From Verrucomicrobiota bacterium (GTDB lineage: Bacteria > Verrucomicrobiota > Verrucomicrobiia > Verrucomicrobiales > DEV007), in the NCBI GenBank assembly GCA_020630975.1, contig JAHDID010000001.1, positions 203,687 to 267,686 on the forward strand: a stretch of DNA of 64,000 nucleotides, read 5' to 3'. This document shows, in pieces, positions 57,686 to 59,167 of the stretch; the stretch's first letter is position 1; each line of letters starts with the position of its first letter. The notes beneath the pieces were generated by a model that was given only the letters and a program-made list of their open reading frames with translations, was not told the origin of the DNA and did no database searches. The position numbers were made by a program, and so were the translations under genes.

Positions 57686-58138
57686 TCACTGAATACGACC
57701 CGCCAATTTGGGATCGACACTATCTACCAAAAAACGAGACAGATACTCCAAGCGGTTCTGGCTCGCTCTCTCACTCATATATTCCCAAGCTTGCTGGAAT
57801 GCAGGGAGCTCAAAGTTGGCGGATAGGCCACGAGTCCACATCGTCCAAGTGGATGAACCAATGCGCCCCTGCGCTCTGAGAAATAACTGCGAGTTACACA
57901 GGTGAAAGTATTCATGAAAGGCAGCCAGAGACTCCTGCAGCTCGGAATCCGTCAGTGGCTCTCCCAAAAAGGCTTTCACCGGCAGCCGTGCGCATAGTTC
58001 CCTGTAATCGCGCCGCAACTGATCCTCAAACTGAGTCGCCGCCAACCGCTCGGAGTGCCAAAGTTGAAAAACAGCGATGAGCACACCGATAGCCGTAGCC
58101 GTCGATGCGACAGCAGTGATCCAGTCTAAAACATTCAT
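57686..58138 (-). CDS. Single-helix membrane protein, unknown
   Basis: 150 residues with one N-terminal helix (about 5-27, WITAVASTATAIGVLIAVFQL) then a soluble helical domain with conserved-looking Trp/Phe (EYFHLCNSQLFLRAQGRIGSST region, about 90-115). The layout recalls DUF4760-like proteins, which are small membrane-anchored helical proteins of unknown function. It is divergent from the selenoprotein-like gene. Confidence 0.55.
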   Translation of the reverse strand: MNVLDWITAVASTATAIGVLIAVFQLWHSERLAATQFEDQLRRDYRELCARLPVKAFLGEPLTDSELQESLAAFHEYFHLCNSQLFLRAQGRIGSSTWTMWTRGLSANFELPAFQQAWEYMSERASQNRLEYLSRFLVDSVDPKLAGRIQ

Positions 58139-58318
58139 GATTTTTGCGAAGTAAGGAAGCTAGCACACGACCTAGGCGCTTAACCACTACCGAAACTGAC
58201 TCCGATTGTAATGCTCGGAGAGCTCTCCGCCGAAAGCATCTACGCCCCACCCAATCGAGGGGCGCAGATGCTTGCATTGATTTCTCGGTAGCCTTGGGCA
58301 CAGTCTATGACTACGCCC

Positions 58319-58573
58319 ATGAAAGTCGAAATCATCTACTGCCCTATCTGAAAGTCCTATGGCGAAAAGGCGGCAAGTTATGCCGCCGCGATAGCAGAGC
58401 ATTTAGGGACCGAACCCAGTGTCAGAGGTGGACGCTGGGGCCAGTTCCAAATCTTCGCGGATGGGCAGGAAATCGCTCGGCGAGAGGGCAATTGGCTCTC
58501 CCTGATCCTCACCAAATCCGGCTGGCCGACCACCGAGCAGGTCATCGAACGAGTCACGAAAAACAGCCTCTGA
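58319..58573 (+). CDS. Candidate selenoprotein, SelW/Rdx-like, UGA read as selenocysteine
   Basis: From ATG 58319 one frame runs to the TGA at 58571-58573 with a single in-frame TGA at codon 11 (58349-58351). The product would be 84 residues: MKVEIIYCPIU followed by KSYGEKAASYAAAIAEHLG, then RGGRWGQFQIFADGQEIARR and a C-terminal helix TTEQVIERVTKN. The N-terminal strand-CxxU-helix, then the Gly-rich strand G.FQI.ADGQ.I match the Rdx (SelW/SelT/SelH, PF10262) fold with catalytic CxxU in place of CxxC. A GC-rich hairpin follows at 58369-58387. It would be a cytosolic thioredoxin-like redox protein. Twelve bases after its stop is a DUF899 thioredoxin-like gene with CxxC. A normal truncated 10-residue peptide makes no sense. 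Confidence 0.85.
58369..58387 (+). promoter_or_regulatory. bSECIS-like hairpin of the selenoprotein ORF
   Basis: GGCGGCA-AGTTA-TGCCGCC, a perfect 7-bp GC-rich stem with a five-base loop, starts 17 bases after the in-frame UGA, placing the apical loop 24-28 bases downstream. Bacterial SECIS elements lie just 3' of the UGA with the apical loop in this general range and bind SelB. The loop lacks the typical leading GG or GU of known bSECIS, so the assignment is inferred. Confidence 0.65.
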
Positions 58574-58585
58574 CCTCCATAGCCC

Positions 58586-59167
58586 ATGAGCACCACCACT
58601 GAAGACTGCGAAAAAAGATACGAGTCCATCATCGCCATCACAAAGAAGCTGGCCGAAGATGCTCGCAATGGAGAGCACCAGAAAATCGACCAGGATTTTA
58701 GCTTTCAAACCACCAGCACACCTATAACGCTGAGCGAAGCATTTGGCGAAAAATCGGACCTCATCATCATCCACAACATGGGCACTATCTGCTCTTGGTG
58801 CACGATGTGGGCGGATGGCTTCAATGGCATGATCGATCACCTAGCCGATCGCTCCGCCTTTCTGCTGCTATCGCCCGACATCCCAGAGACGGTTGAGGAA
58901 TTTGCCCAAGACCGTGGCTGGACATTCCCTGTGGCATCGGCCCGCGACTCAGGTTTCAATGAATACATCGCCTTTGGCGAAAGCGACGATGCCTACCCAG
59001 GCTTCTCGACTCTCCATAAAGATACCGATGGCACGATATGGAGGATCGCGACAGAGTGCTTTGGTGATTTCGATCTATTTTCGCCCGTCTGGCATATGAT
59101 CGCACGGCTGAAAGATGGCGTGGCCGACTGGCAGCCAAAGTTCAGCTACGAGGATACTAGCGAGTAA
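58586..59167 (+). CDS. DUF899 family thioredoxin-like protein
   Basis: 193 residues. Thioredoxin-like strand-CxxC: IIIHNMGTICSWCTMWADGF (Cys-Ser-Trp-Cys), then FLLLSPDIPETVEEFAQ and FPVASARDSGFNEYIAFG, all typical of DUF899. Role in redox or detoxification unknown. Starts 12 bases after the stop of the selenoprotein-like gene, so the two are co-transcribed and probably functionally linked as redox proteins. Confidence 0.85.
   Translation: MSTTTEDCEKRYESIIAITKKLAEDARNGEHQKIDQDFSFQTTSTPITLSEAFGEKSDLIIIHNMGTICSWCTMWADGFNGMIDHLADRSAFLLLSPDIPETVEEFAQDRGWTFPVASARDSGFNEYIAFGESDDAYPGFSTLHKDTDGTIWRIATECFGDFDLFSPVWHMIARLKDGVADWQPKFSYEDTSE

What the first reader, a model, noticed from the sequence alone, without database searches (positions are those of the whole stretch)
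58319..58573. Unannotated-type selenoprotein: SelW/Rdx-like ORF with in-frame UGA in a CPIU motif
One frame is open from ATG to a second TGA with a single TGA exactly where the CxxC/CxxU cysteine of Rdx proteins should be. The product matches the fold length (about 84 residues) and is followed by a DUF899 thioredoxin-like gene. Automatic gene callers would stop at codon 10 and miss it.
Basis: partly seen in the sequence, partly recalled or inferred. Interest (0 to 1): 0.9.

Follow-up and report, generated by a model that had tools for sequence, protein, structure and literature searches.

The report
Divergent bacterial SelW-like selenoprotein gene
The stretch encodes a small 84-residue redox protein of the known selenoprotein W family, in which one UGA codon is read as selenocysteine instead of stop; it is a real and easily missed gene, but a divergent new member of a known kind rather than something unprecedented.

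Summary
Window 58319-58573 (+) is open from ATG to TGA with one in-frame TGA at codon 11, in CPIU. A blind six-frame scan of the whole window with an Rdx profile built from other genes gives one significant hit, this ORF (E 1.6e-8; next 1.3). Read with Sec as Cys it passes Pfam Rdx (26.7 vs 22.6 bits), and its AlphaFold2 model matches solved SelW-related proteins. The genome carries SelA, SelB, tRNA-Sec (UCA) and an Ndh-SelD fusion. A 7-bp hairpin 24 nt after the UGA meets every rule of the published bacterial SECIS model; 6 of 2160 window TGAs do as well. All 17 relatives from named genomes carry UGA at the same codon. Bacterial CxxU SelW-like selenoproteins have been known since 2005, so this is a new member of a known kind: unusually divergent, without orthologue in the 74 other genomes of its family, and followed 12 bp later by a DUF899 gene. 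In passing, the genome's other SelW-like gene has two Sec codons (UxxU), as do 13 of the other 64 genes collected; UxxU SelW is published for two eukaryotes but absent from the 2026 prokaryotic catalogue.

The parts
58319..58573 (+). SelW/Rdx-like selenoprotein gene, 84 residues, stop TGA at 58571-58573 (alternative in-frame ATG at 58307)
   Evidence: PF10262 26.7 bits over cut-off 22.6; sole significant hit of a blind six-frame scan, E 1.6e-8
58340..58351 (+). redox motif C-P-I-U; Cys8 codon TGC 58340-58342, Sec codon TGA 58349-58351
   Evidence: aligned to CxxU/UxxU of relatives
58369..58387 (+). putative bacterial SECIS hairpin GGCGGCA-AGUUA-UGCCGCC (7 bp, loop 58376-58380, 24 nt after the UGA)
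   Evidence: meets the published bSECIS model (PMC13188914); same pairing register as other SelW genes
58571..58573 (+). terminal TGA, read as ordinary stop: no hairpin follows (-0.5 kcal/mol over 48 nt)
58586..59167 (+). DUF899 thioredoxin-like gene (CSWC motif), 193 aa, starts 12 bp after the stop; probable same transcript (inference)
   Evidence: PF05988 61.7 bits, AhpC-TSA 25.0 bits

Best explanation
The ORF is a functional bacterial SelW-like (Rdx, PF10262) selenoprotein gene. SelB carrying Sec-tRNA(UCA) is recruited by the hairpin at 58369-58387 and inserts selenocysteine at UGA 58349-58351, giving an 84-residue protein with a thioredoxin-like Rdx fold. The CPIU motif sits at the beta1-alpha1 loop and cycles between selenol/thiol and a selenenylsulphide, exchanging electrons with a protein or glutathione partner. 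The co-directional DUF899 protein, also thioredoxin-like with CSWC, is a plausible partner or co-regulated redox enzyme. Shown: ORF, homology, predicted fold, machinery genes, hairpin. Inferred: actual Sec insertion, redox cycling, the partner and the operon.
For: Rdx homology across the UGA. AF2 model pLDDT 86, pTM 0.76, best PDB matches are SelW-related proteins 2p0g, 2obk, 2ojl, 2oka, 3dex, 2fa8, query TM 0.74-0.77. SelA E 7.4e-123; tRNA-Sec 58.6 bits over cut-off 47, anticodon TCA; SelB 272.6 bits over 242.25, 668-aa frame; SelD 301.1 bits in a Pyr_redox-AIRS fusion. Hairpin meets all bSECIS rules; 60 of 2160 window TGAs have such a hairpin at -7.5 kcal/mol or lower and 6 at -12.5 or lower; 0.8% of synonymous recodings reach it. 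17 of 17 named-genome relatives have UGA at the same codon.
Against: No orthologue was found in the 74 other genomes of the family or 386 of the phylum, so selection on this very gene cannot be shown, and its branch is very long (5.2 changes per column). With Sec masked as X the Pfam score falls to 20.7, below the cut-off of 22.6. TIGR02174 stays below its cut-off (22.5 vs 34.2). A covariance model of the other SelW hairpins does not single out the window's hairpin (5.8 bits, eighth in the window; not listed genome-wide). No strong Shine-Dalgarno motif is seen before the ATG. Expression is untested.
Confidence: 0.91

Rival explanations
1. A decaying, no longer translated SelW-like paralogue: the genome keeps a typical SelW-like gene elsewhere, and the window copy drifts.
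For: Very long branch and no orthologues; better-conserved second copy at G000:C31:44856-45074.
Against: Frame intact over 84 codons apart from the expected UGA; the family's YCxxU, glycines, F and DG are kept; coding-like codon use; a strong hairpin rarer than 1% among synonymous recodings; confident fold.
Confidence: 0.06
2. A chance open frame behind a real 10-residue stop; no selenoprotein.
For: A stop-free run of this length has P about 0.05.
Against: Profile E 1.6e-8 in the six-frame scan; 0 of 4000 shuffles reach the score; Rdx fold; UGA at the family's Sec codon.
Confidence: 0.01
3. UGA is not read as Sec: the true codon is TGC/TGT and the TGA is an assembly error, so the protein is a Cys-type Rdx.
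For: CxxC Rdx proteins exist in the same order (L022-L024); only one assembly was seen.
Against: The hairpin sits where a SECIS should be; relatives at this codon are UGA; the full Sec machinery is present.
Confidence: 0.02

Closest known systems
Bacterial SelW-like (SELENOW-like) selenoproteins, PF10262, CxxU (PMC1088965, PMC2398784, PMC13188914)
   Same: CxxU after beta1, Rdx fold, about 70-85 residues, SECIS hairpin just after UGA, found in genomes with SelA/B/C/D
   Different: Only 21-38% identical to those compared; extra Lys codon between Sec and (N/S)Y; about 8-residue insertion before the C-terminal helix; hairpin loop starts 24 nt rather than 21-22 nt after UGA
SelW-related proteins of solved structure (2p0g, 2obk, 2ojl, 2oka, 3dex, 2fa8)
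   Same: Fold, query TM 0.74-0.77
   Different: 20-24% identity; here the second active-site residue is encoded by UGA
UxxU SELENOW of amphioxus and Ostreococcus lucimarinus (PMC7539508)
   Same: Same family; the two-Sec form parallels this genome's other copy (L052)
   Different: The window gene itself is CxxU; those are eukaryotic
Prx/SelW neighbouring selenoprotein genes in GOS reads (PMC2398784)
   Same: SelW-like gene next to a thioredoxin-fold redox gene
   Different: Here the neighbour is DUF899 with Cys (CSWC), only weakly Prx-like

Membership tests
SelW/Rdx family (PF10262) | profile match over the gathering score along the whole domain | tested here: met
   26.7 vs 22.6 bits, residues 2-80, profile 1-73 of 74; 20.7 if Sec is masked
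SelW/Rdx family (PF10262) | CxxU/CxxC motif directly after the first beta strand | tested here: met
   YCPIU, strand E3-7 then helix H12-29
SelW/Rdx family (PF10262) | thioredoxin-like Rdx fold | tested here: met
   22 PDB matches at E <= 0.001: ranks 1-21 are chains of 2p0g, 2obk, 2ojl, 2oka, 3dex, 2fa8 (SelW-related and their kin), rank 22 is MIEN1
NCBIfam TIGR02174 (SelT/SelW/SelH, CXXU_selWTH) | score over curated cut-off | tested here: not met
   22.5 vs 34.2 bits, E 1e-4: related, but too divergent to be filed in this model
bacterial selenoprotein | SelA, SelB, tRNA-Sec and SelD in the same genome | tested here: met
bacterial selenoprotein | in-frame UGA aligned to Sec or Cys of homologues | tested here: met
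   17 of 17 named-genome relatives have UGA; order-level genes mostly UGA, some Cys
[quoted passage not shown]
   loop AGUUA, 7 bp, 24 nt, -12.5 (hairpin alone) to -18.5 kcal/mol
bacterial selenoprotein | the same gene with UGA conserved in close relatives | tested here: inconclusive
   no orthologue at E <= 0.01 in the family; only the wider SelW-like family
bacterial selenoprotein | selenium physically incorporated | not testable with these tools
   needs 75Se labelling or mass spectrometry

The most novel reading that the evidence does not exclude
The window gene founds a separate divergent SelW subfamily working as a dedicated selenol electron donor for the adjacent DUF899 protein, in a genome that divides SelW function between this CxxU form and a two-Sec (UxxU, possible diselenide) form decoded from one shared SECIS.
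Probability: 0.15. Interest if true: 0.6.

Novelty: new member of a known kind. Interest (0 to 1): 0.32.

Why it matters
It is another selenoprotein hidden from standard annotation, and it shows how divergent a SelW-like selenoprotein can be while keeping its UGA and SECIS position. The bacterial function of SelW is still unknown; the tight pairing with a DUF899 gene gives one testable partner. The UxxU form found alongside it, with one hairpin in range of two UGAs nine bases apart, would be a useful test of how one bacterial SECIS can serve two Sec codons.

Tried and rejected
Orthologues of the window ORF: none in phylum and family samples, genome contigs with the single protein or plasmids. 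A 12-sequence alignment was too diverse to scan with. Rfam over the locus: no relevant match. PDB by sequence: none. Blind covariance model of 33 other SelW hairpins: the window hairpin is not singled out, so sequence-level homology of the SECIS is not claimed. DUF899 orthologues: best 34-38% in three genomes, none with an Rdx-like gene within the flanks read, so conserved synteny is not shown; viral contigs none, plasmids under 30% identity in the rows listed. No conserved SelW neighbour was seen by eye in 20 loci. The terminal TGA as a second Sec codon was rejected: no hairpin, and only Pro-Pro and TAG follow.

Full report
Observation. The sequence at 58319-58573 is as described: ATG, an internal TGA at codon 11 within Y-C-P-I-TGA, and a terminal TGA, giving 84 residues.

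Is it more than chance? Openness alone is only mildly unlikely (P about 0.05 for 73 codons without TAA or TAG). Homology is decisive. I collected SelW-like genes from other loci, built a profile without the window sequence and scanned all six frames of the window with TGA read as Cys. The only significant hit is this ORF (E 1.6e-8; next 1.3). Keeping the CPIU end and shuffling the rest never reaches its score (best 17.4 vs 31.8 bits in 2000), so the part after the UGA is itself Rdx-like. Pfam Rdx is passed with Sec read as Cys (26.7 vs 22.6) and missed with the residue masked (20.7). NCBIfam TIGR02174 is matched only below cut-off. So it is a divergent member.

Fold. AlphaFold2 on a five-sequence alignment gives pLDDT 86 and pTM 0.76 with the order beta-alpha-beta-beta-beta-alpha-alpha. 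The best 21 PDB matches are chains of SelW-related proteins and their kin, and the next is human MIEN1, which from my own knowledge is an Rdx-family protein. The weak stretch is the insertion around residues 55-70.

Machinery. The window's own genome (7.14 Mb, 158 contigs, 95.8% complete) has SelA, tRNA-Sec with anticodon TCA, SelB in a 668-residue frame and SelD fused behind a pyridine-nucleotide oxidoreductase domain. Ndh-SelD fusions were described in GOS data (PMC2398784).

SECIS. The 2026 review states the bSECIS rules: loop of 3-9 nt with G in its first two positions, stem of 4-16 bp, 16-37 nt from UGA, MFE at most -7.5 kcal/mol (PMC13188914). The window has GGCGGCA-AGUUA-UGCCGCC 24 nt after the UGA; the hairpin alone is -12.5 kcal/mol, and 40-nt and 48-nt folds reach -14.5 and -18.5. 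Of 2160 TGA triplets in the window (both strands), 60 have such a hairpin at -7.5 or lower and 6 at -12.5 or lower. Among random synonymous recodings of the same residues 4.9% and 0.8% do. In 35 distinct 24-nt sequences (window included) the six pairs in the same register are kept in 92.4% of cells, with 32 cells changed on both sides against 7.0 in shuffles; registers slid by 1-3 columns keep 16-59%. The window differs from the commonest type at pairs 6-18 (C-G to G-C) and 9-15 (C-G to A-U), both sides at once. However, a covariance model from 33 other genes does not pick out the window hairpin (5.8 bits), while it finds the genome's other SelW gene at 55.8 bits (that gene was in the training set). 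The shared register is therefore suggestive of common descent, not proof.

Relatives. With an alignment query, 17 loci in named genomes (Planctomycetes, Myxococcales/Polyangiaceae, Acidobacteria, Caldithrix, KSB1) encode relatives, and every one has UGA at this codon. In the order, 70 of 387 genomes have Rdx matches, mostly with one or two TGA inside. In the class sample, 67 of 384 genomes match; the UGA form is frequent, and forms without a stop are also present. Sec-type SelW with few Cys homologues in Sec users was noted in 2006 (PMC1794560). The window protein sits on a very long branch that cannot be placed, and no orthologue was found in its family.

Context and mechanism. The DUF899 gene begins 12 bp after the stop, and its product has a CSWC motif in a thioredoxin-like family. 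Its own relatives are rare in the phylum and not near Rdx genes in the flanks read. Co-transcription and partnership are inferred from spacing only. The most likely mechanism is that of the family: SelB-dependent Sec insertion at the UGA, then a CxxU selenol-thiol cycle on a protein or glutathione partner. The substrate is unknown for bacterial SelW in general (PMC1088965, calls the function unclear; PMC13188914, says functions remain largely uncharacterised).

Novelty. Bacterial SelW-like CxxU selenoproteins are an established family (PMC1088965, PMC2398784, PMC9312934, PMC13188914). This is a new and divergent member. What may be new lies outside the coordinates: the same genome's second SelW-like gene is UxxU, as are 13 of the other 64 distinct genes collected. 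The single hairpin lies 22 nt after the second UGA and 31 nt after the first, both inside the model range. Prokaryotic SELENOW is catalogued as CxxU with one Sec (PMC13188914), whereas UxxU SELENOW is published for amphioxus and Ostreococcus (PMC7539508).

Noticed in passing
L052:3857-4078 (G000:C31:44856-45074), the window's own genome: Second SelW-like gene with two in-frame TGA codons (YUGMUNY): a probable two-Sec UxxU selenoprotein. 14 of 65 distinct SelW-like genes collected are UxxU, e.g. L028-L033, L035-L037, L039, L053, L061. Not in the 2026 prokaryotic catalogue; known in two eukaryotes.
   Followed up: partly
L052 and other UxxU loci: Only one hairpin was modelled behind the two UGAs, 31 and 22 nt away, both within the bSECIS range, so one SECIS may serve both codons.
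   Followed up: partly
L018:1387-3651 (-): SelD is the C-terminal half of a 754-aa pyridine-nucleotide oxidoreductase-SelD fusion with a CGGC motif, a known Ndh-SelD type.
   Followed up: yes
L030:1981-2274 and L032:1719-2009: A small Smr-domain gene lies just downstream of UxxU SelW-like genes in two genera of the same family; in L032 it overlaps the SelW stop.
   Followed up: no
L052:4152-5090: An OmpA-domain protein with a long run of tandem PTTPSN-type repeats follows the UxxU gene.
   Followed up: no
window 57686-58138 (-): 150-aa gene with an N-terminal hydrophobic segment upstream of the selenoprotein, opposite strand, no Pfam match.
   Followed up: no
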